From positions 34,719 to 73,273 of the forward strand of contig JAADHV010000111.1 in NCBI GenBank assembly GCA_013151635.1: 38,555 bases of DNA, given 5' to 3'. The position numbers and the translations under genes were made by a program. The DNA is from Deltaproteobacteria bacterium (GTDB lineage: Bacteria; Desulfobacterota; Desulfobacteria; Desulfobacterales; Desulfobacteraceae). The notes beneath the pieces were generated by a model that worked only from the letters and a program-made list of their open reading frames with translations, did not search any database and was not told where the DNA came from. Below, in pieces: positions 18,101-36,088 of this stretch. Position 1 is the first letter of the stretch; every line of letters begins with the position of its first letter.

Positions 18101-19027
18101 TTACCCGCCCATTTCATGTATTTGAAAGACACTGATTTTATTGGCAAACATTTCCACAACAAAAAGCCTTTTCTTTTCATCGATAAAAAGGCCTACCGGG
18201 GTCTTGAATTTTTTAACCGATCCTGTGGATACATCACCTACGGCTGCATAAAATTCACCTGTTGATTGAAAAACCTGGATAACCCCAGTGTAACTGTCAC
18301 TGACAAAGACATGATTTTTATTATCAAGTGCAACTCCTTTTGGCCTGAAAAACTGACCCTTTTCCACCCCCCATCCACCGATGCCTGTAACAAAAAGGCC
18401 ATCAGGGTTAAGAACCTGAACTCTTGTATTGATCACATCGACAATATATAAATACTTATCCGTGTCAAGGGAGAGCAAAAAAGGATATCTGAACTCCTGT
18501 TTTCCAGTACCGGGTTTTCCAAAAGATTTCAGCAAAGTGAAAGTTGTCAGGTCATAAACCAGAATCTTGTGGTTGTCATTGTCAACCACATAAATTCTGT
18601 TCCGTGTTTCATCAACTGCAACATCAGTCGGATCGGCAGGTTTCCGGGTTTTGGAATTTATCTTTATTTTTGACAGGAAAGCCCCTTTTGAATTAAATAT
18701 CTGAATCCTGTGATTTCCTGAATCAGCAATATATATCCTGTCTTTCCCATCCATGCCAATTCCAAGGGGAAATAAAAATTCACCGTTTTCTTTCCCTTTT
18801 CTACCAAAGGATGAAATAAATTTACCATTATTATTAAAAATTTGAATCTTATTATTTACACCGTCAACAACATAGATTAACCCTTTGGATGATACTGCGA
18901 CCTCACTTGGCTTATTAAACCCATGCCTGATTTCAAAAAGTTTTGTTACCCCTAATAAATTGATCCCGTACGCACTTGGTGCAGACAATATCAAAAAAAT
19001 AATAAAACTGCAGATAAATCGAATCAT
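18101..19027 (-). CDS. exported NHL-repeat beta-propeller protein
   Basis: A 308-residue protein with a cleavable-looking signal peptide (residues 1-21, ending SAYG) and about six NHL repeats. The recurring pattern is P..VAVD..G.IYV.D..N.KIQIF...G.....FG, then a next blade starting F..P. NHL propellers are protein-protein interaction or ligand platforms. Unlike the two other NHL proteins of this operon it shows no lipobox, so it is probably soluble in the periplasm. Its start overlaps the triheme cytochrome stop in ATGA; it is the last gene of operon A. Role in the cytochrome complex is inferred from context. Confidence 0.85.
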   Translation of the reverse strand: MIRFICSFIIFLILSAPSAYGINLLGVTKLFEIRHGFNKPSEVAVSSKGLIYVVDGVNNKIQIFNNNGKFISSFGRKGKENGEFLFPLGIGMDGKDRIYIADSGNHRIQIFNSKGAFLSKIKINSKTRKPADPTDVAVDETRNRIYVVDNDNHKILVYDLTTFTLLKSFGKPGTGKQEFRYPFLLSLDTDKYLYIVDVINTRVQVLNPDGLFVTGIGGWGVEKGQFFRPKGVALDNKNHVFVSDSYTGVIQVFQSTGEFYAAVGDVSTGSVKKFKTPVGLFIDEKKRLFVVEMFANKISVFQIHEMGG

Positions 19028-19899
19028 TGTTGATTTTTATCGTCTCCAAACCCGGGGTTCAGCAGCCTTGGCATATAAAAGCTGGAATATTTTTTTATCA
19101 TACCAATCACTTCCGTACCAAGAAAAGCATTAACTCTTTTCCTTGAATAGCCTAATTCTTCAAAAGGCAGGAGAGGAGATTTTTTCTGGTGACAGTCCTC
19201 ACATGAATAAGGCTGTTTGCTGATTAAATTATGAATAATTTTCTTAGCCTTTGTTTTTTGCAATTCTGTTAACATCGGTTCATTCTTTTTAAACTCCGCG
19301 GCAAAATCCATCCGTTCCTGATTATCAATCCTTTGAAGCGATCCGTTCTTTCTCTCAAACGGAATAATTTTGGCTTTATAAATTCCTGCTGGAACACCTT
19401 CTTTAACAGGACTTGGTACAATCTTGCCACTTGTGCAATCATACCATTTATAAACATTTGTCCTATCTTCTTTTTTGAACTTGGCATGGCAGGTCTGGCA
19501 GGCAATAAAAGAAGCATGCATATTTGCAAACGCTCTGATCTGCTTAATCTTGTCATGGGGGATATCACCATGGCATGTGATACAATAGGACCTTTTATCA
19601 GGAGTTATTTCATAATCAATAAGATGGAAATGCCCTTTAATTCTCTTAACGTCAAAAATCTTGTAACCAAGGTAGTGCTTAACCCTTTCACCGCTGTCGA
19701 GAACCAGATCCTTGAAATCTTCTTTTTTTGGCAAACTCTTTTTCAGATCTGTCCCGTCGGAGATTTGTTCAAATTCTTTTCTGTCTTTATATTCCTTCAC
19801 CATCCGCCCGAAAGTCAGTTGCCAAATGATAAATATAAGAAATATTGTGACTGCCATGGTTGCTATAATATAGAGTTTGGTCAGGACGGTTTTCATCAT
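19024..19899 (-). CDS. membrane-anchored triheme cytochrome c
   Basis: A 291-residue protein with one N-terminal transmembrane anchor (about residues 8-30) and three CXXCH sites: Cys106, Cys134 and a CEDCH in the last quarter. Its periplasmic domain is clearly homologous to the C-terminal half of the cytochrome b fusion at 33376-34902 and to the second half of the hexaheme protein at 32410-33363. Shared marks are GHFHL, PH..K, the MH.(S/G)FIAC.(T/V)CHA block and the terminal ExxGMIxKYxxFYxP. It overlaps the cytochrome b gene in ATGA, so the two subunits are made together; the b subunit likely passes electrons from quinol to these hemes or the reverse. Confidence 0.87.
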   Translation of the reverse strand: MMKTVLTKLYIIATMAVTIFLIFIIWQLTFGRMVKEYKDRKEFEQISDGTDLKKSLPKKEDFKDLVLDSGERVKHYLGYKIFDVKRIKGHFHLIDYEITPDKRSYCITCHGDIPHDKIKQIRAFANMHASFIACQTCHAKFKKEDRTNVYKWYDCTSGKIVPSPVKEGVPAGIYKAKIIPFERKNGSLQRIDNQERMDFAAEFKKNEPMLTELQKTKAKKIIHNLISKQPYSCEDCHQKKSPLLPFEELGYSRKRVNAFLGTEVIGMIKKYSSFYMPRLLNPGFGDDKNQQ

Positions 19900-20723
19900 A
19901 CTGCATCCTTTTCTGCTTCATGTTCATTACTTTTATAGCCAAGTGGGGGAAGTATTTCATCTTCATATCCTTCCTTTGTCATCAGCTCAACATAATATTC
20001 ATAGTGTTCTTCCACCATGAGTTCTTCAGAAAGATATCCTGTTAAAAAAACAGTTCCCATGGGAAATACGGAAGTGGAGTAATGGACATTATACCAATGC
20101 CAGATAAACAAAAACAAAGCTGCCAGAAGGGCCTCATCACTATGAGCGATCAAGGCGTAATTAATGACTATGCCCGGCAAAATTTTTGAGACCAGGTTTT
20201 CGTTCCACATGATAAGACCGGTCACACCAATAATGAAAATTCCCCAGAAAGGTGCCCAGTAATCAAATTTTTCTTTCCAGGTAAACCTGGCTCCGTGAGG
20301 ATGCTCACCCGTCAAGAAAAATAAATATCTAAGCAGGTCAAAAATATCCTTTGCATCTTTCAGGTTGGGGAGGAGAGGTTGATTTATCAATAATTTGAAC
20401 AATGCTCCAGTACTTAGTTCCTGTTTTCTTTTCAAAGGCACGATTTGCCCCTTGTAGATAATCGTGGTCATATATATGACATGATAAGCAAATAGAATCA
20501 GCAGAATAGTACCGGCAATCCTGTGAATGACAGGCGCAAGTGTGATCCCTCCCACAAGATTATACACATAGGCTGCCCAGAAAGCGTCATGGAATTTCAA
20601 GGGCATGCCGGTTAAAACAAGGGTTATTACTGTTGTAGCAAGCAGGGCGTGTTGTATCCGCTGGTTAACTGTAAATCTAAAAAAATATTTTTTGCCGTTG
20701 GCTATTCTAATTTGTCTCTTCAT
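19896..20723 (-). CDS. cytochrome b membrane subunit
   Basis: A 275-residue integral membrane protein with four main hydrophobic helices, of the formate dehydrogenase gamma / hydrogenase b-type fold. Candidate heme b ligands are His25 (RIQHALL), His67 and His81 (HRIAG...YH) and His194/His209 (IAHSDEAL, WHWYNVH). Such subunits exchange electrons between the quinone pool and periplasmic cytochromes. A strong GGAGGAGG precedes the ATG. It lies between the octaheme and triheme genes, and its counterpart in operon B is fused to the triheme domain, which supports a physical complex of all three. Confidence 0.9.
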   Translation of the reverse strand: MKRQIRIANGKKYFFRFTVNQRIQHALLATTVITLVLTGMPLKFHDAFWAAYVYNLVGGITLAPVIHRIAGTILLILFAYHVIYMTTIIYKGQIVPLKRKQELSTGALFKLLINQPLLPNLKDAKDIFDLLRYLFFLTGEHPHGARFTWKEKFDYWAPFWGIFIIGVTGLIMWNENLVSKILPGIVINYALIAHSDEALLAALFLFIWHWYNVHYSTSVFPMGTVFLTGYLSEELMVEEHYEYYVELMTKEGYEDEILPPLGYKSNEHEAEKDAV

Positions 20724-20727
20724 TTAT

Positions 20728-21783
20728 CTATTTCCTCCTCCGGGACAGTCCTGGTAGTAATCGACGAAGCAAATCCAGCAACATGATCCCTAAAAGAGGC
20801 AGAAGCGTGCCACCGGTTAAAACAATGAAAGCAGATTGAAAATAGTATTGTTTAGGGCTCCGTTTTTTATTGAATTCTGCATGCACCTCAAACTGGGCAA
20901 GTTTTGGCGATGCATTTGTATGACATTCCACATTTGAGCAGGTATTATATTTATTATTTTCATGCGTGGGCGCCAATGAATTTTTTTTACTTAGCATCTG
21001 GTGAACAGATTCTCCCCTGTTAACATGGCAGTCAAGGCAGTCAGGAATTCTTTCGTCCAGAAATTCGGCAGCCTTGCCGTGGAAACTGTCCTTATATGTC
21101 TCAACAGCCTTGATTGATAAATTATGTCTTTTCACAAGTTTTATATCGTCGTGGCACCTGACGCATACTTCAGTTATATTTTTCGGATTCCTGCTTCTAT
21201 GCAGCCGTGTGGTCACATGGTTATAAAAGCGGTAGATAAAATCATCTTTTTTATGACAGACCCTGCAACGCCCCAGAGCCTGCTCTGAAATACCAGGCGT
21301 CACCCTTTTATTAAAGGACACCGGCCGGTATAAAGGATTATCATGACAATCTTTGCAATAAGGCCTGTCTTCCGGAAATTTTTTCAGCTGGCCGGTTTTG
21401 TCGAATTTGCCGTGTACGCTTTTTGCAAGGAAATCAGCGACATCTTTATGGGAAAATTTTTTTTCACTGGTAGGCTCTATAATATGGCATTGAGTTAAGC
21501 AATCAACCTTTTTGGCCGGGTCATGGGGTATCTTCTTGATATCGGTATGACACCCTTCACATTTTACTTTCGCATGCATGCTTATATTAAAAGCAGACTC
21601 ATTTACATAAAGAAGCCTCAAAATTCCTTTGTCTCCTTCAACCCGGCTTAACCCCGGATATTTATGGCATAACAGGCAATTGCCTACATCAGAAGCGATT
21701 GAGAACTTTGGGTTACTCAGGATAAAGCATAATACAGATGTGCTTATTACAAGAATTGTTTTGAAAACCTTCTTTTGTGTCAT
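20728..21783 (-). CDS. membrane-anchored octaheme cytochrome c with CX3CH and CX4CH sites
   Basis: A 351-residue exported protein with six CXXCH motifs plus two non-canonical sites, C95-LTQ-CH (CX3CH) and C282-SNVE-CH (CX4CH), making eight possible hemes. There is a signal peptide at 1-31 and a C-terminal transmembrane helix at about 316-340 followed by Arg/Lys, so the heme domain faces the periplasm and is tail-anchored. The operon B protein at 34931-36088 is a full-length homologue. The first gene of a b/c module (octaheme, cytochrome b, triheme), it probably receives electrons from the cytochrome b. Attachment of heme at the odd sites is plausible but unproven. Confidence 0.88.
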   Translation of the reverse strand: MTQKKVFKTILVISTSVLCFILSNPKFSIASDVGNCLLCHKYPGLSRVEGDKGILRLLYVNESAFNISMHAKVKCEGCHTDIKKIPHDPAKKVDCLTQCHIIEPTSEKKFSHKDVADFLAKSVHGKFDKTGQLKKFPEDRPYCKDCHDNPLYRPVSFNKRVTPGISEQALGRCRVCHKKDDFIYRFYNHVTTRLHRSRNPKNITEVCVRCHDDIKLVKRHNLSIKAVETYKDSFHGKAAEFLDERIPDCLDCHVNRGESVHQMLSKKNSLAPTHENNKYNTCSNVECHTNASPKLAQFEVHAEFNKKRSPKQYYFQSAFIVLTGGTLLPLLGIMLLDLLRRLLPGLSRRRK

Positions 21784-21822: not shown

Positions 21823-23553
21823 TTAATTCCTGTGACGGGTAAATTCATCATAACTCCACCCATTATGATTTCTGTTATGGCATCTTAAAGAGCATTGCCC
21901 TTTGAACTTTCCCAGGTCCTTGAAATATCTGGACCCATGCATGCTGGTTTGAACGATTGCAATATCGAAATTTATCAGATGAGTATTATTCGTGCTGTTT
22001 CCCTGGGAACTGCTGATCCCGTGGGGATCATGGCAGGCAGAACAGGGAGCCCGGCTCATAAGATGCCTCTTATGCGGGAAGCCACTCTGATCGCTCAAAA
22101 GGCTGGACCTGCTGTGACATTTATAGCACAGGTCATACTCAGAAGGACTTTCCGTGGTATAATCATCTGTATTGTATTTTTTTTGAAGCAGGTATTTAAA
22201 ACTTGAACCGTGGGGTCCTTTGGGGCCGGTTGTCTCATCATTGTTGTGACAATCCGTACAGGATATGATGCTGTTTTCTGAAAGACCGGGCAGGAGGCTT
22301 GGAACATCAGTATTTCTTCCAACCGACTGAACAGGGTGAAATGAAGGGTTGCCAGGATTAAATTCCAGACGTGTATTAAGCTGTCCGATTTGCCGGGTAA
22401 TGGGGAAAGATGAGATTACATTGTTGTCACCATGACATTTAAAACATATTGAGTATAGATTTTGAACTCCGGTAACCTCCTGGCCATTGGAGTCTATTCC
22501 CGAAACCCCTTTATTGGCCCCTGATATTAAAGGCGGACCAGGAGACGGACTGTTATCAGCCTGATGGGGATTATGACAGTCCACACACTCAACATGTTTT
22601 GGAACTGTACCTGATACAAAGCTTTCTGCTGCATCATGCTTGTTCGTATAGTCCTGTACAGGATGCTTATATTGCTTTGTAAATTGAATTTCTATATTTT
22701 GGGATGCTACATTTCCATTATGGCATACAAGACAATTGTCTTCTTCAAAAGCATAGTGTAAAAGTCTTTCTTTTGATCCTGCCAAGTGAGAGGTATGACA
22801 GTTGCTACAGCCATTTTCAGCAACCGTGGAATAATCAGTATCAGGCCATGGATCTGTTCCCTGGCTGTTCCACTGGGCACTGGAAACAGAATGGGAGCTT
22901 GTTGTCCAGCCGGTCCGGGAGTGACAGGCAGTACACAGGCCGGAATACTGGTTTGACACGACCAGGAACTTTTTAAAAGTATCATTATGGGGATTATGGC
23001 AGGCTGTACACTGGAGCATGTTATCTTTATCAAGCTTTATTTTCGGGGGTAGTGTTGAAGGCCATTCAAGTTCCCCGTTTGCAAGGGCCAGGCTTGTATC
23101 ATAAACAAATGAGACAGGGTGGTCATCAGACAGATCCGTGCCCAGGTTTGAATCTCCGGGCGGCATGAACCGGATCCCACCGGCAAAAAGGACCTCATCC
23201 GGTCTGGAGACAAGCCCGCCAAGGGCTATTGTGCCGTCATGGCAGCTTAAACACTGTCGTGATGCGCCTGTGGGTTGTCCGGGTGTTACATGGAGGGTCG
23301 AACTTGTATAAGGCGTGTATGTCGTTGTCTGGGCCTTATGGTTCCAGAGAAAAGGGATATCTGTCCTCCCGCCATGGGGGACATGACAGAATATGCAGAT
23401 TTCATCTTCTGAAGCAGCTTTGTTACTGCCGGGTCCGGTTACAGACAAATTATGCTTGGTAAATTGTATTGTCCCCGGGAATGCATTGGAATAAGATATT
23501 GCAATCATAAGAAAGCCGGTCAAAATATATATAGAAATAGACTTACTCATCAC
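21823..23553 (-). CDS. dodecaheme c-type cytochrome
   Basis: A 576-residue exported protein with a signal peptide (residues 1-26, ending NAFPG), eleven CXXCH motifs and one CX3CH (Cys554, CSLRCH), so up to twelve hemes. No lipobox or anchor is seen. The first 220 residues repeat the plan of the small tetra- and pentaheme proteins at 28565 and 27789: CHVPH, PFLWNHK, Y.PYTS.T, CLSCHDGT, GTDLSDDHP, CHNPHN, LCTACH. The rest holds further doubled-CXXCH pairs (CHNPH, CHDPH). Sitting just after the barrel and NHL lipoprotein genes, it is the candidate cytochrome that works inside or across the barrel. The start overlaps the preceding NHL gene by 11 nt. Confidence 0.87.
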   Translation of the reverse strand: MMSKSISIYILTGFLMIAISYSNAFPGTIQFTKHNLSVTGPGSNKAASEDEICIFCHVPHGGRTDIPFLWNHKAQTTTYTPYTSSTLHVTPGQPTGASRQCLSCHDGTIALGGLVSRPDEVLFAGGIRFMPPGDSNLGTDLSDDHPVSFVYDTSLALANGELEWPSTLPPKIKLDKDNMLQCTACHNPHNDTFKKFLVVSNQYSGLCTACHSRTGWTTSSHSVSSAQWNSQGTDPWPDTDYSTVAENGCSNCHTSHLAGSKERLLHYAFEEDNCLVCHNGNVASQNIEIQFTKQYKHPVQDYTNKHDAAESFVSGTVPKHVECVDCHNPHQADNSPSPGPPLISGANKGVSGIDSNGQEVTGVQNLYSICFKCHGDNNVISSFPITRQIGQLNTRLEFNPGNPSFHPVQSVGRNTDVPSLLPGLSENSIISCTDCHNNDETTGPKGPHGSSFKYLLQKKYNTDDYTTESPSEYDLCYKCHSRSSLLSDQSGFPHKRHLMSRAPCSACHDPHGISSSQGNSTNNTHLINFDIAIVQTSMHGSRYFKDLGKFKGQCSLRCHNRNHNGWSYDEFTRHRN

Positions 23554-24637
23554 TATCTTCTGCCTTTTTTGGTTTTGTTTTCAGATATTGAAAGATCTGT
23601 ATCCGTTTGTTGTAGGAGTCAGCAACATAGATCCTGTCATTTTTATCTATAAAAATACCGGTTGGCAGCCAGAATTCCCCAGGTTTGTTTCCATGGCTGC
23701 CAAATGCCATTAAAAGCCTGTTTTGTTGATCAAATATCTGAACATTGTCAAAAAGGTTGTCCACGACATAGATATTGCCTTCACTGTCGGAAGCAACTCC
23801 TTTAGGTCTTGTAAAATAGCCCGGATTATCTCCGGCACTGCCGAATGCCCTTTGGAAAGTTCCATTGGATGAAAAGATCTGGATCCTGAAATTAAGTGAA
23901 TCGGAAATTATAATGGTTCCGTCTTTTCTTGTAAAAATGTTGGTGGGATAGTGAAGTTTCCCGCTTCCGGTCCCGTTCCTTCCGAAAATACCCTTTAAGC
24001 CCAGTGTATCCAGGCTGTACCTGAAAACATTAGAACTTAATGTGTCTACGACAAGCAGTTCGGATGTTTTTTCATTTATTGCGATGCCGGTTGGCCTTTC
24101 AAAAACGCCTTTGCCGATTTCTCCGGTATATTTTTTGCCGTTGTTGTTAAAAATTTTGACAACACCCTGTTGTGAATCGGTGACAAAAATTCTTCCTTTT
24201 TTATTATCTATGGCAAGATCAATGGGTAATGAAAATTTTGTTTTGCTCTTTGGAAATGCATAATATTCCTTTTGCTTACCATTAAATACGTGCACGATTT
24301 TAAGATAAGTATCCACAACGTAAAGATTGCCGTTTGAATCGGTTTCCACACCATAGGGGGACACAATGGAATGAATTGTTTTCCCGGCAATATAATCAAT
24401 AAATCTTTTTAGCAGTCCCGGTTTAATTTTAAAATCAAGGGGATTTGAGACAGAATTTATAAATTTTATCCTTGCTGTCTCGGGCGGTTCTGGCCAGACG
24501 ATTAAAGGAGGGGCAGGCGCCTTGTATGCCTTAACTTGAGAAAAATCTTTGTGGCAGGCAATAACTGATAAAAAAAGCAGGATCAGAGCCGGTGCAAAAA
24601 AGAACAGCTTTTTTTTATTTCTGCAAATTATTACCAT
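23543..24637 (-). CDS. NHL-repeat lipoprotein (six-bladed propeller)
   Basis: A 364-residue protein with a signal sequence ending in a lipobox-like VIAC (Cys near residue 28), then a Pro-rich linker (WPEPPETARIKFI) and about six NHL repeats with GTGSGKLHYPTNIF, GYFTRPKGVASD and PGEFWLPTGIFID blades. It is predicted to be tethered to the outer membrane. The linker followed by a propeller is shared with the NHL lipoprotein at 26626-27723. It overlaps the barrel gene upstream (7 nt) and the dodecaheme gene downstream (11 nt), so the three are co-translated and likely form one outer-membrane assembly. Confidence 0.85.
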   Translation of the reverse strand: MVIICRNKKKLFFFAPALILLFLSVIACHKDFSQVKAYKAPAPPLIVWPEPPETARIKFINSVSNPLDFKIKPGLLKRFIDYIAGKTIHSIVSPYGVETDSNGNLYVVDTYLKIVHVFNGKQKEYYAFPKSKTKFSLPIDLAIDNKKGRIFVTDSQQGVVKIFNNNGKKYTGEIGKGVFERPTGIAINEKTSELLVVDTLSSNVFRYSLDTLGLKGIFGRNGTGSGKLHYPTNIFTRKDGTIIISDSLNFRIQIFSSNGTFQRAFGSAGDNPGYFTRPKGVASDSEGNIYVVDNLFDNVQIFDQQNRLLMAFGSHGNKPGEFWLPTGIFIDKNDRIYVADSYNKRIQIFQYLKTKPKKAEDSDE

Positions 24638-26586
24638 AGTCTCCTGGATATTTGAAAACTTATATAGTTAAACTCTCGAGATTCATCGAAAGTCCTTTCT
24701 TTTTCATTGATAAACATGTATTTGATACGGCCGCTCCAGATCCCGTAATACAAATTGAGACTCACGGAAACACCATGATCCAGTGAGTCCACAGAAGCTC
24801 CTGAAACACTGTTCCTGAAGCCTTCAATACTGAACTTCCACGATCTTGCCGGTGCATAATCAATTTGTGTTTTTATTGAATAAAAAGTTTCATTTTCACT
24901 GGTTTCCTTAAATCTGGTTTCACCATAGTTTGCAGACAACATGGAAAAAAGCCTTCTCGAGGGCATATATGATAATGTTTCTTCAACAACCCATCTTGTA
25001 TTGGAACCGCCTGAATTTTTATATGAATCCTGATAAGAGAGTCTTGCCCTGGACCATTTTAAATCCCAGGTTACTTCTCCTGTATGGACTATGTTATTAT
25101 CCAGGTTATCAGGAGCAACACCGCCGTTATAGATCTGTTTGGATTGATAGTACCGGTAAAGAAAGGATAAAGATTGAAAAGGAATATAAGTGAACCCGTA
25201 TGACTGGCTGAAAATAGCATCATCAAAGGCGGACGGGTTTTTATACCGGTAGCTTACCAGGACATTTTCACCATCGGTGATGGCCCCCAGCGGGGTGCGG
25301 CTTATCCTCAAAAAAGGGGACAGTTCTGTGATGGTATAGTCAATATTTTCTATATATATAGCTGTGTTAGCCGCATTGGTTACAACAACAGAGCCGGTAT
25401 CAATATTTTTCTGATTCAGAAAGACCAGTTCAGTTGTGTTTAATATATGTGGCTCATTTATGGATTGCATGTATTCATCTGTAACATCCCTGTATCTTAG
25501 CTTATAGTTATTATCTGAGTTTAAGCGGAATGTACCTATGGATGTTCCCTGTTTAAAATCAAAACCAATTCCGCCCCCGTAAATCTGTTCACTTCCTCCC
25601 TGGTATTCGCTGTCAGATGCCTCGCTGGTAATATTCGTACTCAGATTATTTAAAATATCATAGGATAATCCGGCTCCTAAAGATTTTGTTTCACTGTCAA
25701 AAGAACCTGATTTATTTTTGGTATAATGTGCATAATAATGCGATTCCAGTGACTTGGTATGTTCCCAGGAAAGATTTTGATTAAACGTAATTCCCGAAGT
25801 GTTTATAAATGTACTTTCCGTCCGCCTGTAACTTAAAGATGAGAAAAGGTTTCTTCTTTTATCTTCTGAAAAATCCCACTGGTTTTGAAGTTCATAGTCC
25901 ATGGTCTCAATATCTGTAACAAAACTATTGGTATTCTGGGTCTTGTCGACAAAGGAAGCATTAAATTCGGTCCTGTTATTTTCTCTGGGCAGTTTCATAT
26001 TCAGCCTGACCTCATCACCAGAATTGCTTGAGCTGTAAAAACCGGTCTGCCTGCTGTCATTATGGACATAACCGAGTGATGTCGGAATCATCATATATTT
26101 TAATAACAAGTTGGTGCCATAGGTTTTTGTCCGGGAGTTTGACTTTTGTGCAAAGGAGCTTGTTGTTTCAGTATCCTGTTTCCTGGCAAAAAGCCGCAGT
26201 GTATACGGTTTGAATTGAAAAACAGAGGCATCGAAATTATAACCTAACATAGAGGTATCTATCTTGCTTGATTTTGATACTGTATCGGCAGAGTGATCTT
26301 CGGCTGTCTGGCTCCATTCCGGTTCCAGCCCAAGTTTAAAACTTAAAAGGGCCGGATGATAAACCCAGCCTTCCGTTTCAATATTAAACCGCTCGGTGAA
26401 ATCATTTGTTATATCTTCAGAGTTGATATCTTTGCCTTTCCTTGTTTCCTGAGTGTATTCATACAAGAGTTCAAGAGCAAGTTTCGGCCTGTCTAAATGA
26501 AAAAAATTTTCAGCATTCGCAGGTTGAGAAACACAAATGAAAAAAACAACGATGAATAATAGTATATATGCCATGGCCTTTTGCAT
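24631..26586 (-). CDS. large outer-membrane beta-barrel (porin-like) protein
   Basis: A 651-residue exported protein. It has a signal peptide (1-25, ending ANA), then alternating hydrophobic/polar strands with many Tyr, Ser, Asn and Thr throughout, no Cys in the mature part, and a C-terminal strand ending in an aromatic residue (Trp), the usual outer-membrane barrel signal. A compact segment at about 376-450 (LNTTELVFL... then DYTI... and VSYRYK) looks like an inserted small beta domain. Placement among multiheme cytochromes and NHL lipoproteins suggests the barrel of a porin-cytochrome conduit, as MtrB-like or OmbB-like proteins are, although I see no direct sequence motif tying it to those families. 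Barrel call strong, partner role inferred. Confidence 0.82.
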   Translation of the reverse strand: MQKAMAYILLFIVVFFICVSQPANAENFFHLDRPKLALELLYEYTQETRKGKDINSEDITNDFTERFNIETEGWVYHPALLSFKLGLEPEWSQTAEDHSADTVSKSSKIDTSMLGYNFDASVFQFKPYTLRLFARKQDTETTSSFAQKSNSRTKTYGTNLLLKYMMIPTSLGYVHNDSRQTGFYSSSNSGDEVRLNMKLPRENNRTEFNASFVDKTQNTNSFVTDIETMDYELQNQWDFSEDKRRNLFSSLSYRRTESTFINTSGITFNQNLSWEHTKSLESHYYAHYTKNKSGSFDSETKSLGAGLSYDILNNLSTNITSEASDSEYQGGSEQIYGGGIGFDFKQGTSIGTFRLNSDNNYKLRYRDVTDEYMQSINEPHILNTTELVFLNQKNIDTGSVVVTNAANTAIYIENIDYTITELSPFLRISRTPLGAITDGENVLVSYRYKNPSAFDDAIFSQSYGFTYIPFQSLSFLYRYYQSKQIYNGGVAPDNLDNNIVHTGEVTWDLKWSRARLSYQDSYKNSGGSNTRWVVEETLSYMPSRRLFSMLSANYGETRFKETSENETFYSIKTQIDYAPARSWKFSIEGFRNSVSGASVDSLDHGVSVSLNLYYGIWSGRIKYMFINEKERTFDESREFNYISFQISRRLW

Positions 26587-28451: not shown

Positions 28452-28524
28452 CTCCTGAATCCGTTTAATAACGCTTATGCTGCGGTCAAGGCATATAAAC
28501 CACATTTGACCTTTATGCAGTTAT

Positions 28525-29218: not shown

Positions 29219-29370
29219 GGTTTTATTTTCCTTTCTTTTATTATGATTAATAAATTCATTTTTTATTACAGGTTACAATGTTCTCTTTAATGATCAATAC
29301 TTTTTCTTAAACCACCTCCTTGCCTGAAAGATAAAAATTGCAGTTCTTTAATTTTATAGTTAAAGGAAGA

Positions 29371-29386
29371 GCAAATATTGTGCCAC
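29371..29386 (-). promoter_or_regulatory. sigma-54 promoter of operon A
   Basis: On the minus strand GTGGCACAATATTTGC, followed by T, matches the sigma-54 consensus (TGGCACR-N4-TTGCW): TGGCAC at 29385-29380 and TTGC at 29374-29371 with exact spacing. Transcription would begin near 29360, leaving a leader of about 140 nt before the tetraheme ATG. It resembles the operon B promoter at 36158-36173 over the whole core. Confidence 0.8.
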
Positions 29387-29602: not shown

Positions 29603-32392
29603 CTAACCGGGTTTTATTTTTCTTATATTAAGCTTGTGAAAATATTTGAACCTGAACAATGAATCCAGGCCATGGCAGTCCTTACATATCTGTGTGGCGG
29701 CAGGGGGCCTTAAAAAACTGTTTAAGGCATTGCCTTCCAGGTTAATCCTGTTGCCTTTCAAGCTTGCCTGATAAGACCATTGATGTACATTATGGCATGA
29801 AGGGCAGAATATATCCCCCGTATTAACAGGTTTCCATGTTTTTGAAGAGAAAAGAGGGAAAAAACCGGGTTTGCCTTTAATATTACGGCCAATATTTTTA
29901 ATAAGTTTGCCTAAGGGGTGGCTCGCGATTTGCGGTATTTTATTTTTTGCAGGACCATTTTTCGAATGGCAGGAATTGCAGGCCTTTTCATATATGTTAA
30001 CACCATCCCCAAAATTTCGGGCCCAAAGCTTGAATTTATGGGTGCTGTTGTGAACCAGATGGCAAACACCGCAGGTTCCGGATTGTGCGGGTGTCTTATT
30101 CAGGATATTTTTAGAACCCGGGGATGAGAATACCAGATCATGGTCTGTATTGACAATGAGTCCTTTGCCAGGGTGGCAATTATCACAGAGCAAAGGAGAA
30201 GGAGAATTTTCCAGTCTTAAAAAATTATTTGAGGTGCCCTTGTGGGGATTATGGCATGTATAACATTTTAAGAGGCCCTTTTTTGACTTTTTTCCGATTT
30301 TGTCGAACAGGGGCAGGCTTGTGAGGATTCCCTTGTCGTAAACTGATATATTAACAGGGTGGGAGGCTCCTTTAAGCACCTTTTTTTTAGCGACCCCGTC
30401 TTTATTATGGCAGTCAAAGCAGACATTACCCCGGACAAGTTTTCCGGCCCAGAGAAAACTGTTGTTTGCATTATGGACCCAATGGCATGTTTTGCAGAGT
30501 ATTGCGCTGTTTTTTCCTGAACCGGACAAATCATGTTTGGAATTGGTTATGGCAAACTTATCAGTATGACAGCTTTTACAGATCAGGGGCGGATTTTTTC
30601 TTAAAAAAGAGACTGTTTTTATTTTGTTGCGAATCCTGGGAGTATGCGGATCATGACAGGTATAGCAGCTTAAGTCCCCTTTTGCAGAGTATTTTCCGTT
30701 TTGATCAAAAAATGGCAGTCCTGCCCTCCTGTATTCATTAATATCATGTCTTTTTAAAGGGTGGGAAAAACCTTTATTTACTTTTTTATGTGCTATCCCA
30801 TGTTTGTTATGGCAGCTTTTACATAATTGCCGGTTGCTTTTGCTATCTCTGGAATCGGTTTTTCTTGCCCAGAGAAAGCCTTTGTGTGATCCATGTATAA
30901 GGTGACAACTTCCACACAGCCCGGAATCAGCGGCAGTCTGGCCAAGAATATTTTTTGCCGATGGCGATGACTTTTTCAAATCATGTCTGGTACCTGCTAT
31001 GGAAAATTTTTCAAAATGACATTCCTTGCATATTATGGGTGTTTTTTTCCTTAAAAAATACTTGTTTGGCATATTATGATTTGGTTTGGCCCGGATACCA
31101 TGGGGGGCATGACAGGTTATGCAGACCATATCACCGTTGATATCCTCAACTCCAAACTTATTGAAAAGCGGAAGAGAAAACTTTTCACGATTGATATTTA
31201 TTTTAGTAATACTGTTTTCTCTTTTCTTAAACGGATTTATTTTTAACGGGTGGGTCTTGCCGGACAGGTTAACTTTTGCGGCTACATTGCCTTTACTGTG
31301 GCAGGAAAGGCAAATCCTGGTCGTAATATCTTTTTTGCCGGAAAGTTTTCTTGCGGGCTTATGGGGCAGATGGCATGCTGAGCATAGCCCTGTTTCTTTT
31401 ACTGTTTTACCCTGGAGGTTTTTTTCTCCAGGTGCTGTGTTGCCAAGGTTATGCTTTGTATACTTCACATATTGTTTATCAATGTGACAGGTAAGACAAA
31501 GCCCTGATTTTGCGTCATTTTCAATAATTAACAGGTTTTTTTTATGCTTATTTTTATGGACTTTGTGACATGTCCTGCAGACAATTTCCCCATTCTTATC
31601 AAGCCTTGCCCCCATTTTTATTAATCGCCCGGGGATCCTTGCCTTTACCGGCTTTATGTTAACAGCGTGGAAAGGCTTTCTTTCTCCTTCTTTTGAAATA
31701 AAATATTTATCAGGATGGCAACTAAGACAAAACCCGGATCTTGAAGGATTTTTTGATAAAAATGCTTCATATTTTGAACCATGGGCAGAATGGCAGATTT
31801 TACACGTAAGTTTTTGTCTTTTCCCCTGCCAGGATACCTTGATATTTTTTTTGTTATTTTTGCCTGCCAGGTTCAAAGGGTGGTTCCCCCTTTTTTTTCC
31901 CCCAGACATGTCAGGGTGGCACTGGATGCACATCTGTGCTTTGTCATTTGGACTTCTCATGAAAATGGATGTGTCAGTCCCGGGCCTGCTTGGAACACCA
32001 TGGGCTGTATGGCATGTAGAACACTGCATTTTTCCATTTTCATCCAGGGGAAATATTTTGGGTATTTTCATGGCAGGGGGCGGTGGGACATTGGTTTTAT
32101 GACCAAAATGGTTTACATTTTCTGCCCTTGAATCCACGACACTCCCATCATGACAGGAGTAGCACATTTCAGGCGATGCCACGACCTTCTTAGAATCATA
32201 TTCAACCAGATCAGAACCTTTTCCCAAAATAAAAAATGTGTCTATCCATCTATAGTGACACAAGGCGCAACCCTTGGCCGAGTTAGGATTCCTGGGGGGG
32301 GGCTTTGTGCCTGCATATGAAGCCCTGCAAGGCAGGAAGCTTGAAAAAATAACAAAAACCAGCCAAAATAAAAATAAGTACTTGACCCTCAT
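29603..32392 (-). CDS. 24-heme modular multiheme cytochrome c
   Basis: A 929-residue exported protein with a signal peptide (about 1-28) and 24 CXXCH motifs. The first Cys residues are at 42, 77, then 124/155/197/222, 272/299/337/361, 424/455/493/524, 576/605/633/658, 710/736/774/805, then 863/903. Modules of about 150 residues recur, each with four hemes and the order CHxPH, CHxxK with HDL, CHxxH with LWA, CHxK and then SHPL. The mature protein is strongly basic and Lys-rich. No anchor, lipobox or Cys outside the hemes except in the signal peptide. It is last in operon B and could span the periplasm or act as an extended wire; the location is inference. Confidence 0.9.
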   Translation of the reverse strand: MRVKYLFLFWLVFVIFSSFLPCRASYAGTKPPPRNPNSAKGCALCHYRWIDTFFILGKGSDLVEYDSKKVVASPEMCYSCHDGSVVDSRAENVNHFGHKTNVPPPPAMKIPKIFPLDENGKMQCSTCHTAHGVPSRPGTDTSIFMRSPNDKAQMCIQCHPDMSGGKKRGNHPLNLAGKNNKKNIKVSWQGKRQKLTCKICHSAHGSKYEAFLSKNPSRSGFCLSCHPDKYFISKEGERKPFHAVNIKPVKARIPGRLIKMGARLDKNGEIVCRTCHKVHKNKHKKNLLIIENDAKSGLCLTCHIDKQYVKYTKHNLGNTAPGEKNLQGKTVKETGLCSACHLPHKPARKLSGKKDITTRICLSCHSKGNVAAKVNLSGKTHPLKINPFKKRENSITKININREKFSLPLFNKFGVEDINGDMVCITCHAPHGIRAKPNHNMPNKYFLRKKTPIICKECHFEKFSIAGTRHDLKKSSPSAKNILGQTAADSGLCGSCHLIHGSHKGFLWARKTDSRDSKSNRQLCKSCHNKHGIAHKKVNKGFSHPLKRHDINEYRRAGLPFFDQNGKYSAKGDLSCYTCHDPHTPRIRNKIKTVSFLRKNPPLICKSCHTDKFAITNSKHDLSGSGKNSAILCKTCHWVHNANNSFLWAGKLVRGNVCFDCHNKDGVAKKKVLKGASHPVNISVYDKGILTSLPLFDKIGKKSKKGLLKCYTCHNPHKGTSNNFLRLENSPSPLLCDNCHPGKGLIVNTDHDLVFSSPGSKNILNKTPAQSGTCGVCHLVHNSTHKFKLWARNFGDGVNIYEKACNSCHSKNGPAKNKIPQIASHPLGKLIKNIGRNIKGKPGFFPLFSSKTWKPVNTGDIFCPSCHNVHQWSYQASLKGNRINLEGNALNSFLRPPAATQICKDCHGLDSLFRFKYFHKLNIRKIKPG

Positions 32393-32409: not shown

Positions 32410-33363
32410 TCAAAACCCAAAAAGACTGGGAAAGTAAAAAGTTTTATATTTGGTGATCAATCCTTTTATATTGATCCTCTCAAGATTTTTCGTTTTTTTC
32501 TCGTCAAACCCTAGACTATTGAAATTCAGGACACCGTTTATGGAGTGACACTGGTTGCAGGCCACACTGGCCTCTTTTTGCTCAATATCTCTGTGAAAAA
32601 AAAATAATGCCTGGTCTGCATCATCTGGAGTCATCCTTTTCTTTCTGGACATAAATATTCTGGCTTTTTTGACATCAACCCTGTTTGTTAAATTAATTTT
32701 TTTCCCGTTTTTAAGGATATGGACTGTTATTCTTGATATGTAATTCTGATTTTTTTGAGTTTTCTTTGTCTGGGGGTCGTAATAAGTTCCAAATGGCTTT
32801 CCGCTGAATTGTACATCCTGAGTTTCTCTCCATTCAAAAATAATATTTTTAAATTTGCTTTTCTTAATATGACAGACTTCACATTGCATGAATCCTGTGT
32901 GCATATTAAGAAAAGCCCTGGCAACCCGGTTTTTGCTGTGGGGGTATAACCTGTGGCACACAGCACATGAAGATTTGTCATTAAGGCTTACAATATAGGA
33001 TTGTTCATTTTTATGAAAACCGCTTAAAGGATAATCCTTTATCATCTCATTTACTTCATCGTCCTTATGGCAGGAAGCTGTGCAATCCACTTTTGATTCA
33101 CCAGTATGGGGAACGCTTTTTATTGTTGCATGGCATTTTTTACAGCTCAATTCACCATGGGTGGAGGCTGAAAAACCTTCTTCGTCTATATGCAGTATTT
33201 TTAATTTTTCAGATGGTTCATAAGGATGTTCAAGTCTTACAAGGCCAGGATATTGATGACAAAAAAGACATCCGCTCTCATCCAAGGCAAAACAAAGCAA
33301 AGGCAGAGAAAAAAAAAGAGCCATTGAACTTAAAAATATTATAAAAGGCCTTTTAAATTTCAT
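32410..33363 (-). CDS. chimeric hexaheme cytochrome c
   Basis: A 317-residue exported protein with five CXXCH motifs and one CX3CH (Cys94-TAS-Cys98-His). The signal peptide covers about 1-26. The first 100 residues match the N-terminal module of the octaheme proteins (CLFCHQYPGL, THGELSCKKCH, KVDC). From about residue 130 it matches the triheme domain (PHSKNRVARAFLNMHTGF, CEVCH, the final CNQCH with LGF...ITKYKTFYFP). It therefore joins the start of the octaheme protein to the triheme protein and lacks the middle, the tail anchor and the N-terminal anchor. Soluble periplasmic shuttle between those complexes is a reasonable guess. It sits between the fused cytochrome b gene and the 24-heme gene. 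Confidence 0.87.
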   Translation of the reverse strand: MKFKRPFIIFLSSMALFFSLPLLCFALDESGCLFCHQYPGLVRLEHPYEPSEKLKILHIDEEGFSASTHGELSCKKCHATIKSVPHTGESKVDCTASCHKDDEVNEMIKDYPLSGFHKNEQSYIVSLNDKSSCAVCHRLYPHSKNRVARAFLNMHTGFMQCEVCHIKKSKFKNIIFEWRETQDVQFSGKPFGTYYDPQTKKTQKNQNYISRITVHILKNGKKINLTNRVDVKKARIFMSRKKRMTPDDADQALFFFHRDIEQKEASVACNQCHSINGVLNFNSLGFDEKKTKNLERINIKGLITKYKTFYFPSLFGF

Positions 33364-33375: not shown

Positions 33376-34902
33376 CTATTCCTTGCTATCTGCCGGCAGC
33401 GCTCCAAAATCCAGCTTTACAGGAAGATAAAATGTTTTGTATTTCTCAATCATACCGACTATTTCTGTTGAATTCAAATGATTAACCCTCTGCCGGGAAA
33501 ACCCCAGGCTTTCAAAGTCAAGGTATCCATTTTTTTTATGACAGTCCGAACAAAACACAGGTTTTGGTGAAATATTTTCATGGAGTATTATTTTTGCTCT
33601 TGCAATCTGGTCCGGGGAATACTGGTCCTTATGTTTTAAATACTGCTGGGCCGTTGCTTCGTTAACCGGCCTGAAAATGTGTTTTGGTGAACCACCTTGT
33701 ATCTGGATCGGATATATTTTAGCCGGGTATTTTCCATATCCACCTTTAACTTTCTTTTTCATTTCACCGGTTTCATTCATAATCCAGGTAAAATAGATAT
33801 TTTTGTCTTCGACTTTTTTCCGGGCATGGCAAACAGAACAGGCTATAAAGCCTGTATGGGCATTTAAAATAGACCGGACCTTTTTTTCTTTGCTGTGGGG
33901 GTATGATCCATGGCATTTAAGGCATAACGGCGGATTAGGCTCATCTGTTGTAACATACTCGTCAACCAGGTGGAAATGACCCCGGTAGACAGGATCACTC
34001 TTTTTTAATATGGTCTTGAACTGATCCTCGGTCTGCAGGGATTTGACAGGGGGACTGGCCGCAAGTTGCGGGAAATATACAGTATGAAGCAACCAGGTTC
34101 CGAACATGAACAGGGGAACAATATAAACCAGTTTAAGACAAAAATTTAAAAATCTCCCAGGGGGTTTTCGTATTTCAGGAAATTCATTTTTTATGTAGAT
34201 CCTGCCAAGTTCAGGATCATTTATAATTTTTTTATAATGAAGAGGGTAGTCTTCCATCATCTCTTTTTCATCGACAGTTCCTGTAATCCAGGTATTATCC
34301 AGGACAGATCTGCTGGGTTTTATCTGGACTTCATAAAGGTGCCAGATCATTATTGCAAGACAGGCCAAAACAGCTTCCATACCATGAACGATGGCAGCAA
34401 TATCAATAATGAACTTACTCCACATGGATTCAGACCACAAAAGAATCCCGGTGACGGACATTAAAGTGCTGCCGGCCACCAGTGCGCCATACTCCATTTT
34501 ATGCTTATAGTTAAACCGGTCAAACTCAGGCGGGGAGGATTTTATGCCCGCATAATAAAAAATATTATGAATAAAATCTTTTAAATCTTTCATTTTTGGC
34601 AGCATATCAAGAAAAAAACGATGCCCGGCAGAAGTCAAAAGCAGATAAAGACCATGATAAACACAGGTTATAATCATTGTTATACCGGCAATGCGATGTA
34701 AAATTTTTCTAAACAGGAATACGGTTTCCCTATATTCACCGAGCAAGGCTACAACCCCTTCAGGCAGTTTCACCATAAACCCTGTGACAGCAAGGGTCAC
34801 AAATGCTCCCAAAAGCATGAAATGTTGAATTCTTTCCGCACGGTTCAGCCGGATAAAATATTTTCCGGAAATTTCAGGTTGACCGCTCTGTCTGGTTTCC
34901 AT
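33376..34902 (-). CDS. cytochrome b - triheme cytochrome c fusion
   Basis: A 508-residue fusion. Residues 1-230 are a b-type cytochrome with four main helices and candidate ligands His27, His69, His83, His173 and His188. A further helix at about 251-272 leads to a periplasmic domain with three CXXCH motifs (Cys327, Cys355, Cys451). In operon A these two halves are separate overlapping genes (19896-20723 and 19024-19899), and the extra helix corresponds to the N-terminal anchor of the separate triheme protein. It is predicted to exchange electrons between the quinone pool and periplasmic hemes. In composition it recalls the b/c fusion idea of Geobacter CbcL, but with the domains in the other order. 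Confidence 0.9.
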   Translation of the reverse strand: METRQSGQPEISGKYFIRLNRAERIQHFMLLGAFVTLAVTGFMVKLPEGVVALLGEYRETVFLFRKILHRIAGITMIITCVYHGLYLLLTSAGHRFFLDMLPKMKDLKDFIHNIFYYAGIKSSPPEFDRFNYKHKMEYGALVAGSTLMSVTGILLWSESMWSKFIIDIAAIVHGMEAVLACLAIMIWHLYEVQIKPSRSVLDNTWITGTVDEKEMMEDYPLHYKKIINDPELGRIYIKNEFPEIRKPPGRFLNFCLKLVYIVPLFMFGTWLLHTVYFPQLAASPPVKSLQTEDQFKTILKKSDPVYRGHFHLVDEYVTTDEPNPPLCLKCHGSYPHSKEKKVRSILNAHTGFIACSVCHARKKVEDKNIYFTWIMNETGEMKKKVKGGYGKYPAKIYPIQIQGGSPKHIFRPVNEATAQQYLKHKDQYSPDQIARAKIILHENISPKPVFCSDCHKKNGYLDFESLGFSRQRVNHLNSTEIVGMIEKYKTFYLPVKLDFGALPADSKE

Positions 34903-34930
34903 ATAAGTCCTTTGCCGATCTAAAACATTA

Positions 34931-36088
34931 TCAGTGTTTTTTCCTGGCTCTCAAGTAATCAAAAAATTGATGAAGGCCCATAAAACCTATTACACCTGCG
35001 ATTAATATTTTATAAAATAATTTCAGCAGTTTCAATATATTGTAGTGAAATAACTCTTTTGCCGGAATTTCAACTTTTGCACGTTTTAATAATAGAGAGC
35101 TTGCTGCCACATCCGGGCTTAATTCATCTTTATCAAATTTTGTGCTGGCAATCTCGGCTTTAATTCCATAGGCATGTACCCGCCCTGTTGAAAATTCATT
35201 GGTAGCACCGGGATGACAGCTCTGAACCCCGCCCTGCCTTGAGCAGGTCTGTATCCTGTTATTAATATGAACCGGGGATAACGAATCTGATTTAGCCCTT
35301 ATTTCATGAATGGAATGTCCTAAAGTAACATGACAGGTAACACAGTCCGGAGCACTCTCGACACTGTACTTAACCAGTTTCCAATGATAGGTGTCTTTAT
35401 AGGTTCCTACTGATTCAAGCCCGTGGCGGGCCATTTTTTCTTTATCTCCATGGCAGCTTGTGCAGAGAGTTACAATCTCTTTTTGAGCCCTCCTTTTTTT
35501 CATGCGAAGGGCGAAATGAGCATAAAAATTATCTGCCCATTCCTTTTTTGTATGACAGCCTTCACATCTGCCTACTGTTTCGTTCAGCAAGGCCTGGCTT
35601 GCGGCCCCAAGTCCATTGAGGGGAGTGTACATCCTGTTATTATGGCAATATTTACAATCAGGCAGATCCTCGGGAAATGGTATGGTTTCCCCCCTGGCGT
35701 TTTTCCCATGCACACTTTGCTTATATTTATTGACCATATTGATATGAGAAAAATCTTTATTGGTTGACGGCTCTTTCAAATGGCAGTTGGTAGAGCAATC
35801 AACCTTTTTAACATCTGTATGCGGGATCTGGTTTAAGCCGGTATGACATCCCTTGCATCTTAATTTCCCGTGAACGGAATTTGCAAATTTTTTTTCATTT
35901 ATGTAAAAAATTCTTCTCCTGCCGGTTTTATCATACCGTCCCATGCGGGGATACCTATGGCAGAGAAGACAATTTTCCGTGTCAGTCACCATATCAGTTT
36001 TTGCAGATATCGTGACAGGGTAGTTAGAAATTAATATAACACACAGGAAAAGACAAAATTTTGGTAAAAAAAATTTGATGGAACTCAA
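34931..36088 (-). CDS. membrane-anchored octaheme cytochrome c with CX3CH and CX8CH sites
   Basis: A 385-residue homologue of the octaheme protein at 20728-21783. Six CXXCH motifs are accompanied by Cys98-STN-Cys102-His (CX3CH) and Cys282-X8-Cys291-His (CX8CH). Signal peptide 1-29, and a C-terminal helix at about 355-377 followed by basic residues. The start is TTG at 36088, preceded by a purine-rich AGGGGGC; no ATG precedes the signal peptide in frame. It is the first gene of operon B, with the sigma-54 promoter about 70 nt upstream. It probably docks to the fused cytochrome b encoded next. Confidence 0.87.
   Translation of the reverse strand: MSSIKFFLPKFCLFLCVILISNYPVTISAKTDMVTDTENCLLCHRYPRMGRYDKTGRRRIFYINEKKFANSVHGKLRCKGCHTGLNQIPHTDVKKVDCSTNCHLKEPSTNKDFSHINMVNKYKQSVHGKNARGETIPFPEDLPDCKYCHNNRMYTPLNGLGAASQALLNETVGRCEGCHTKKEWADNFYAHFALRMKKRRAQKEIVTLCTSCHGDKEKMARHGLESVGTYKDTYHWKLVKYSVESAPDCVTCHVTLGHSIHEIRAKSDSLSPVHINNRIQTCSRQGGVQSCHPGATNEFSTGRVHAYGIKAEIASTKFDKDELSPDVAASSLLLKRAKVEIPAKELFHYNILKLLKLFYKILIAGVIGFMGLHQFFDYLRARKKH

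What the first reader, a model, noticed from the sequence alone, without database searches (positions are those of the whole stretch)
18101..36088. Two adjacent operons encode a complete-looking quinone-to-surface electron conduit with about 80 heme sites
Seen: 14 minus-strand genes with tiny gaps or overlaps encode cytochrome b modules, octaheme, triheme, hexaheme, dodecaheme, tetra-, penta- and 24-heme cytochromes, a large barrel and three NHL propellers. Counting the upstream heptaheme protein, 80 heme c motifs including non-canonical ones. Known: porin-cytochrome conduits combine an outer-membrane barrel with multiheme cytochromes, and cytochrome b subunits link to quinones. Inferred: this is an extracellular electron-transfer system. 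The combination of duplicated b/c modules, an OmcE-like pair, a 24-heme wire and NHL lipoproteins in one locus is not one I recognise as a described set.
Basis: partly seen in the sequence, partly recalled or inferred. Interest (0 to 1): 0.9.

Follow-up and report, generated by a model that had tools for sequence, protein, structure and literature searches.

The report
Quinone-to-surface multiheme electron conduit
A sulfate-reducing bacterium carries a gene cluster that looks like a protein cable leading electrons between its inner membrane and its surface; the outer half belongs to a published kind of cable, and one of its proteins may be the socket that holds a surface nanowire.

Summary
In detail: 14 minus-strand genes at 18101-36088 and, with the upstream heptaheme, 80 heme c motifs (74 CXXCH, six unusual). 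The core (OmcE-family tetra/pentaheme, NHL lipoproteins, barrel, dodecaheme) is homologous in gene order to the published Uet (undecaheme) porin-cytochrome pathway and recurs in many phyla, but here lacks the small cytochrome usually encoded before the barrel. Joined to it are two octaheme/cytochrome b/triheme modules and a 24-heme protein. In a Desulfobacterales sample all 7 dodecaheme genomes (this one included) are among the 20 with the octaheme, yet 13 of those 20 lack the barrel, so the parts are separable. The barrel model is confident; its top solved-structure match is MtrB, at low TM. The dodecaheme is an OmcE-like domain fused to an octaheme domain; in 7 of 7 inspected C-terminal-only loci these are two neighbouring genes. 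I propose it seats an OmcE-type filament on the barrel. Sigma-54-type sites precede both operons, next to a sigma-54 activator and a HAMP-heptaheme-HAMP trio. Electron direction is undecided. Conduits coupled to inner-membrane cytochromes b are already in print; this is a new variant of a known kind.

The parts
13221..13787 (+). HAMP1: membrane protein with a HAMP-like region
   Evidence: Pfam HAMP 20.1 bits, below its cutoff of 25; relatives in 16 fetched loci
13784..14551 (+). heptaheme cytochrome c
   Evidence: 7 CXXCH; lies between the two HAMP-like proteins here and in relatives
14562..15137 (+). HAMP2: two predicted membrane segments and a HAMP-like region
   Evidence: Pfam HAMP 21.3 bits, below its cutoff of 25; two hydrophobic segments; relatives in 11 loci
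15159..18083 (+). sigma-54 activator with dCache sensor and Fis-type HTH
   Evidence: Pfam Sigma54_activat, dCache_1, HTH_8 above cutoffs; sensor part found in 5 loci of 4 genomes
18101..19027 (-). NHL1 propeller of the quinone module
   Evidence: Pfam NHL; next to the 15- to 24-heme gene in relatives
19024..19899 (-). triheme cytochrome c with an N-terminal membrane segment
   Evidence: 3 CXXCH, one hydrophobic segment; 41% identical to the C-terminal part of cytb1-triheme
19896..20723 (-). cytb2: FdnI/HydC-type diheme cytochrome b
   Evidence: Ni_hydr_CYTB above cutoff; five histidines invariant in 42 of 42 aligned sequences
20728..21783 (-). octa2: octaheme cytochrome c with a C-terminal membrane segment
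   Evidence: 8 motifs including CX4CH; hydrophobic segment 315-333
21823..23553 (-). dodecaheme (UetJ-like): OmcE-like domain fused to an octaheme domain
   Evidence: 7tfs E 1.1e-28 over residues 10-212; AlphaFold2 pLDDT 88.3, only PDB match 7tfs
23543..24637 (-). NHL2 propeller lipoprotein
   Evidence: Pfam NHL; lipobox pattern
24631..26586 (-). outer-membrane beta-barrel
   Evidence: AlphaFold2 pLDDT 91.0, pTM 0.76, 30 strands of ten or more residues; Foldseek top hit MtrB 6r2q_B E 1e-9, TM 0.44
26626..27723 (-). NHL3 propeller lipoprotein
   Evidence: Pfam NHL; lipobox pattern
27789..28505 (-). pentaheme OmcE-family cytochrome (true start probably internal)
   Evidence: 7tfs E 2.4e-27; signal-like segment at 28-46
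28565..29218 (-). tetraheme OmcE-family cytochrome
   Evidence: 7tfs E 3.7e-30
29370..29385 (-). sigma-54-type promoter site of the core operon
   Evidence: 11 of 12 consensus positions
29603..32392 (-). 24-heme cytochrome c
   Evidence: 24 CXXCH; best family matches DmsE-type decaheme and GSU2203, both below cutoff
32410..33363 (-). hexaheme cytochrome c, a chimera of octaheme N-terminal and triheme parts
   Evidence: BLAST to octa1 (6e-22) and to triheme (8e-18)
33376..34902 (-). cytb1 fused to a triheme domain
   Evidence: Ni_hydr_CYTB above cutoff; 3 CXXCH
34931..36088 (-). octa1: octaheme cytochrome c with a C-terminal membrane segment
   Evidence: 8 motifs including a conserved CX8CH; hydrophobic segment 351-369
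36157..36172 (-). sigma-54-type promoter site of the octa1 operon
   Evidence: 11 of 12 consensus positions
37104..38078 (-). PPIC-type peptidyl-prolyl isomerase (UetB-like)
   Evidence: Pfam Rotamase, SurA_N_3; homologues beside the core in L126, L157, L162
38196..38211 (-). sigma-54-type site ahead of the isomerase gene
   Evidence: 10 of 12 consensus positions

Best explanation
A quinone-to-surface electron conduit built from two separable units. Unit 1 (octaheme, FdnI-type cytochrome b and triheme, present twice, with hexaheme, NHL1 and a 24-heme chain) exchanges electrons between the menaquinone pool and the periplasm, the 24-heme protein bridging the periplasm. Unit 2 is a Uet-like outer-membrane conduit: the barrel carries the electron path through the outer membrane to the dodecaheme, whose OmcE-like domain is the docking base for a filament of the tetra/pentaheme OmcE-family proteins; NHL2 and NHL3 are lipoprotein scaffolds. 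Both operons are probably read from sigma-54 promoters under the neighbouring dCache activator. Shown by computation: gene content, families, barrel model, domain fusion, gene order in relatives, promoter-site enrichment in relatives. Inferred: one continuous wire, the place of each protein, filament docking, regulation by that activator. Direction of flow is open.
For: OmcE-family pair. Confident barrel model with MtrB as top solved match. Dodecaheme = OmcE-like + octaheme, as two adjacent genes in 7 of 7 inspected loci of the C-terminal-only kind. Core order in 52 of 56 testable loci with the barrel (40 by BLAST, 12 by profile) and 52 of 56 with an OmcE-like gene. Invariant cytochrome b histidines. 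In Desulfobacterales 7 of 7 dodecaheme genomes, this one included, have the octaheme (p = 2.4e-9); 5 of these 7 have core and module on one contig (G000, G112, G184, G211, G307), and so has L183 outside the order. Sigma-54-type sites ahead of both operons and enriched ahead of the homologous first genes (8 of 76 and 5 of 39 against 26 of 4000 random stretches).
Against: The quinone module is separable: 13 of 20 octaheme genomes lack the barrel, and in the phylum sample only 7 of 26 genomes with a full-length dodecaheme have the octaheme (p = 5e-4). TM 0.44 and rmsd 14.6 to MtrB is not a firm fold match, and many other outer-membrane barrels score near it; the barrel has no Pfam match and one sub-cutoff NCBIfam match to a phage tail tube model over residues 386-450. 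The small cytochrome usually before the barrel is absent here. A fourth sigma-54-like site of score 10 lies inside the 24-heme gene, and the bare pattern count with two mismatches is not above shuffles. No multimer model, localisation or expression data.
Confidence: 0.6

Rival explanations
1. Two independent systems side by side: a periplasmic quinone/cytochrome respiratory complex with other partners, and a Uet-like conduit fed by general periplasmic cytochromes and Qrc.
For: The module occurs without the barrel in 13 of 20 octaheme genomes of the order sample, single-contig G138 and G150 among them; the core occurs without the octaheme in 19 of 26 full-length genomes of the phylum sample; QrcA is present in the genome.
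Against: All 7 core genomes of the order sample have the octaheme; shared contig in 5 of 7; sigma-54-type sites ahead of both operons.
Confidence: 0.22
2. The same parts, but the dodecaheme is not a filament base: it is a free surface cytochrome that happens to share the OmcE domain, and the filament proteins are separate carriers or not filaments at all.
For: Sequence similarity to OmcE does not show polymerisation; C-terminal octaheme homologues occur beside an OmcE-like gene in loci where no barrel was found in the 18-19 kb fetched.
Against: Conserved fusion with all four motif histidines and four further histidines of the OmcE-like domain kept in at least 65 of 66 rows; constant neighbourhood with OmcE-like genes.
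Confidence: 0.12
3. An octaheme reductase system of the tetrathionate reductase kind rather than a conduit.
For: Partial similarity of triheme, hexaheme and cytb1-triheme to TIGR04315 and, for cytb1-triheme, to 1sp3.
Against: 29 to 36 bits against a cutoff of 375, one segment only; octa1 itself has no match in NCBIfam or PDB; no CXXCK motif in the ORFs listed.
Confidence: 0.06

Closest known systems
Uet pathway of Ca. Tenderia electrophaga and Gallionella (PMC10734462, passages; primary paper not held)
   Same: Tetraheme, isomerase, barrel, two NHL proteins and an 11- to 12-heme cytochrome
   Different: No small trihemes beside the barrel here; extra OmcE-like pentaheme; joined to quinone modules and a 24-heme protein. 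UetA-J sequences were not compared directly
OmcE nanowire of Geobacter sulfurreducens (7tfs)
   Same: Tetra, penta and the N-terminal domain of the dodecaheme are homologous
   Different: The penta has a fifth motif; the dodecaheme carries an added octaheme domain; filament formation untested
MtrCAB
   Same: Barrel with MtrB as best solved-structure match; multiheme cytochromes
   Different: No Pfam match of the barrel, other cytochromes, OmcE-type surface proteins
PCC3 of iron oxidisers (PMC5566968, PMC10734462, passages)
   Same: A very long periplasmic cytochrome (21-27 hemes there, 24 here) and an inner-membrane cytochrome b
   Different: The PCC3/PCC4 inner-membrane motifs are absent from both cytochromes b here
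OmcE/NHL/quinol-cytochrome locus of Geoalkalibacter ferrihydriticus (PMC12016550, passages)
   Same: OmcE homologue, two NHL proteins and a putative quinol cytochrome in one locus
   Different: MtoA-like decaheme type, no barrel gene mtoB by the authors' account; sequences not compared
CbcL/CbcBA-type quinone-cytochrome complexes
   Same: Membrane cytochrome b with multiheme cytochrome c (CbcBA: PMC10553843, section 10 part 1; CbcL recalled)

Membership tests
Uet pathway | 11- to 12-heme cytochrome with doubled CXXCH (UetJ) | tested here: met
   11 CXXCH and one CX3CH, Paired_CXXCH_1; same gene order in many phyla
Uet pathway | tetraheme UetA, barrel UetC and NHL UetHI in the locus | tested here: met
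   tetra, barrel, NHL2, NHL3; by gene content, not by comparison with named Uet sequences
Uet pathway | peptidyl-prolyl isomerase UetB | tested here: met
   37104-38078, beyond the second operon
Uet pathway | triheme cytochromes UetDEG beside the barrel | tested here: not met
   NHL3 lies directly before the barrel; the window's triheme belongs to the quinone module
Uet pathway | direct sequence homology to Tenderia UetA-J | not testable with these tools
   no named Tenderia record found in hand
OmcE family | sequence homology over the whole tetraheme protein | tested here: met
   7tfs E 3.7e-30 and 2.4e-27
OmcE family | forms filaments | not testable with these tools
   needs imaging
MtrCAB | MtrB-type barrel | tested here: inconclusive
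   Foldseek top hit 6r2q_B but TM 0.44; no Pfam match at E 0.1
PCC3 | inner-membrane protein with two WX3HX13H motifs and SGXXG | tested here: not met
   absent from cytb1 and cytb2; one HX13H and one HX14H each
OetABI | homology to OetA, OetB, OetI | not testable with these tools
   no named sequences in hand
FdnI/HydC-type cytochrome b | Ni_hydr_CYTB family and conserved membrane histidines | tested here: met
   above Pfam cutoff; 5 histidines in 42 of 42; TIGR01583 below cutoff

The most novel reading that the evidence does not exclude
The dodecaheme is the base plate of a cytochrome nanowire: its OmcE-like domain caps or nucleates an OmcE-type filament while its octaheme domain docks in or on the barrel, giving one continuous heme chain from the quinone pool to the filament tip; expression is tuned by a new kind of redox sensor, a heptaheme cytochrome held between two HAMP-like membrane proteins and coupled to a sigma-54 activator.
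Probability: 0.3. Interest if true: 0.82.

Novelty: new variant of a known kind. Interest (0 to 1): 0.55.

Why it matters
How cytochrome nanowires are rooted in the cell envelope is, as far as I recall, unresolved. One conserved protein that fuses the OmcE fold to an octaheme domain, encoded beside a barrel in many phyla, is a concrete and testable candidate for the root. The locus also offers a possible complete route between quinone pool and surface in one cluster of a sulfate reducer, in a family where 2 of 86 genomes searched, this one included, have the dodecaheme.

Tried and rejected
Tetrathionate-reductase reading: partial, far below cutoff, no CXXCK. PCC3 membership: cytochrome b motifs absent. 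Search for the missing small pentaheme with a profile: it cross-matches 7 multiheme proteins of the window, so it says nothing. Barrel in plasmids: no match. Shared inverted repeats as activator sites ahead of the three transcription units: nothing shared and convincing. Rows dropped: 24 of the 80 dodecaheme loci have under 7.5 kb upstream and were left out of the synteny count; the tool kept 80 of 125 confirmed loci. NHL2 and NHL3 cross-match, so '55 of 56' means an NHL protein. The four testable loci without a barrel match are L035, L056, L077, L079. In one search the window was not counted, L001 and L148 overlap on one contig, and loci are not independent. I take the 291-genome sample, and the 395-genome sample, to be the same because sizes and handles agree. 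A first attempt to hand in this report was turned back; on rechecking I mended the sigma-54 statement (a fourth site), added the Geoalkalibacter and karst papers to the known side, and lowered interest from 0.58 to 0.55 and the confidence of the two-unit wire to 0.6 for that reason and for the phylum-level overlap.
Full report
OBSERVATION. The 14 minus-strand genes are present and tightly packed, with one 384-base gap (29219-29602) that separates two operons. Motif counting gives 74 CXXCH, four CX3CH, one CX4CH and one CX8CH: 80 with the heptaheme at 13784-14551. The unusual motifs are conserved in relatives: 11 of 12 motifs of the dodecaheme are invariant in 66 rows and the first nearly so; the CX8CH of octa1 holds in all 13 relatives of 55-62% identity and the CX4CH of octa2 in all 11 of 64-81%. 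Two of the three NHL proteins match a lipobox pattern.

HOST. The window lies at the end of a contig of a 4.2-Mb genome (95.37% complete) that has dsrA and the menaquinone reductase subunit QrcA above their cutoffs. The closest relative with the cluster is G043, of the same genus, whose contig length (32,982) equals that of Desulfobacula sp. isolate D100SM.bin.15 (L001, L148). In the family 2 of 86 genomes, this one and G043, have the dodecaheme. Horizontal gain is an inference from this patchiness.

THE OUTER-MEMBRANE CORE. Tetraheme, NHL3, a small cytochrome, barrel, NHL2 and dodecaheme recur in this order in loci named as Nitrospirae, Phycisphaerae, Verrucomicrobia, Gammaproteobacteria, Hydrogenophilales, Geobacteraceae and others, and in Ramlibacter lithotrophicus RBP-1. 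Of 80 loci 56 have at least 7.5 kb upstream of the dodecaheme; 52 of these have an OmcE-like gene, 55 an NHL match, 40 the barrel by BLAST and 12 more by profile. The set matches the published Uet pathway: tetraheme UetA, isomerase UetB, barrel UetC, trihemes UetDEG, NHL UetHI, undecaheme UetJ (PMC10734462, passages; UetJ also PMC13386937, passages). In the window NHL3 lies directly before the barrel, without the small triheme or pentaheme of many relatives. I therefore call it Uet-like and do not file it as a strict member.

BARREL. With 51 rows AlphaFold2 gives pLDDT 91.0, pTM 0.76 and 30 strands of ten or more residues (28 without the two shortest). Foldseek's best solved structure is chain B of the Mtr complex (6r2q_B, E 1e-9) at TM 0.44 and rmsd 14.6, followed by other outer-membrane barrels such as PirA, FimD and LptD. 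Pfam has no match; NCBIfam has one below its cutoff, a phage tail tube model over residues 386-450.

THE DODECAHEME IS A FUSION. Residues 10-212 match OmcE (7tfs, E 1.1e-28) and a second tetraheme entry, 9yuq; 7tfs is the only PDB match of the predicted fold (TM 0.71 on the target, rmsd 3.9). The motif histidines and four further histidines of that domain (33, 59, 144, 188) are kept in at least 65 of 66 rows. In a phylum sample 44 of 395 genomes match the profile: by the match ranges 26 full length (one as two pieces), 10 only the C-terminal part and 8 mainly the N-terminal part. I fetched 6 of the 10 C-terminal-only genomes and a second locus of G706: in 7 of 7 an OmcE-like tetraheme gene stands directly next to the octaheme gene, behind an NHL gene, and no barrel was found in the 18-19 kb fetched. 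In L175, the one of these whose neighbours I scanned with Pfam, further genes are type II secretion components (T2SSE, T2SSF, PilM_2). Separate neighbours in one group and a fusion in another argue that the OmcE-like and octaheme parts work together. That the fusion is the base of an OmcE-type filament is my inference.

THE QUINONE MODULES. octa1/octa2 (40%), cytb1/cytb2 (29%) and the triheme parts (41%) are paralogues, and the hexaheme combines an octaheme-type N-terminal part with a triheme part. Five histidines of the cytochrome b are invariant in 42 of 42 aligned sequences, the window's two included. In Desulfobacterales 20 of 291 genomes, this one included, have the octaheme. Their neighbourhoods show octaheme, cytochrome b, triheme, often hexaheme, NHL1 and a 15- to 24-heme protein as a recurring block, in several genomes more than once (some genes are cut by contig ends). 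A tree separates octa1, octa2 and a third clade that holds the third copy of this genome on contig C71 (L146). The fusion of cytochrome b with a triheme, as in cytb1, was seen in 1 of 45 cytochrome b ORFs of the fetched relatives (L183).

LINK BETWEEN THE UNITS. All 7 dodecaheme genomes of the order sample are among the 20 with the octaheme (p = 2.4e-9); in 5 of the 7 core and module share a contig, and L183 outside the order has both too. Against one obligate machine: the barrel was found in 8 of 21 genomes searched, 7 of the 20 octaheme genomes and G043, and in the phylum sample 7 of 26 full-length dodecaheme genomes have the octaheme, against 25 of 395 overall (p = 5e-4). Incomplete assemblies explain only part of this, since single-contig G138 and G150 lack the barrel. 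The units are separable and repeatedly joined.

REGULATION. With a recalled sigma-54 consensus the two best sites of the window (11 of 12 positions) stand ahead of the two operons; of the two next best (10 of 12) one stands ahead of the isomerase gene and one inside the 24-heme gene. With two mismatches the pattern is not more frequent than in shuffles (8 against a mean of 4.9). The claim rests on position and on relatives: a site is found ahead of 8 of 76 tetra/penta genes and 5 of 39 octaheme genes, against 26 of 4000 random stretches; 1 of 253 for barrel, NHL2, dodecaheme, cytb2 and triheme together; 1 of 57 NHL3, 1 of 28 hexaheme, 1 of 43 24-heme, 1 of 25 heptaheme, 0 of 22 activator and 0 of 3 isomerase genes (p values). 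A dCache sigma-54 activator adjoins the cluster; its sensor part was found in 5 loci of 4 genomes (G043, G175, G184, G211), all with the core. HAMP1, heptaheme and HAMP2 occur together in Nitrospirota loci and in those Desulfobacterales; both HAMP matches are below the Pfam cutoff. A sensing role is speculation.

LITERATURE. Ten searches of an open-licence library. I saw passages of 14 papers, one section part of one of these (PMC10553843) and the abstract and outline of PMC12133095. Bearing on novelty: Uet itself (PMC10734462); undecaheme or over-20-heme clusters, one with petB/petC (PMC13264449); a Geoalkalibacter locus with an OmcE homologue, two NHL proteins and a putative quinol cytochrome (PMC12016550); PCC3 and PCC4 with inner-membrane cytochrome b-like proteins (PMC5566968); ANME-partner OetABI with Qrc or CbcBA (PMC10553843). 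What I saw does not describe this octaheme/cytochrome b/triheme module joined to a Uet-like core, nor the OmcE-octaheme fusion. The primary Uet paper, the OmcE structure paper and the 2011 comparison of sulfate reducers are not held, so I do not claim that either is unpublished.

VERDICT. Observation confirmed; interpretation partly supported; a new variant of a known kind. The most useful new idea is the OmcE-octaheme fusion as a nanowire base.

Noticed in passing
34931-36088 (last motif): octa1 has a CX8CH motif (C..QGG...CH) kept in all 13 close relatives, a rare spacing for heme attachment; whether a heme is bound there is unknown.
   Followed up: partly
13221-15137: A heptaheme cytochrome between two HAMP-like membrane proteins, conserved in Nitrospirota and Desulfobacterales loci: a possible redox sensor.
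   Followed up: partly
L175:3584-14560; similar order in L173, L174, L176, L177, L179, L186: OmcE-like tetraheme and octaheme genes with NHL; in L175 followed by type II secretion genes (Pfam only run on L175), which suggests an export route for such cytochromes.
   Followed up: partly
L146 (G000:C71:1-16000): Third octaheme/cytochrome b/triheme copy of the same genome, without NHL or long cytochrome in the fetched stretch.
   Followed up: no
36470-37087: Short PAS-domain ORF between the octa1 operon and the isomerase gene, plus strand; looks like the front part of a sensor protein that ends early.
   Followed up: no
12226-13071: Secreted protein of 281 aa without a Pfam or NCBIfam match, before the HAMP1 gene.
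   Followed up: no
L129, start: OmcE-like fragment (62% identity, one motif) after a quinone module in G138, a single-contig genome in which the barrel was not found: possible relic of a lost core.
   Followed up: no
L180, L181: Proteins of about 770 aa that begin like the dodecaheme and differ after about residue 420, in loci with NHL and, nearby, a heptaheme gene.
   Followed up: no
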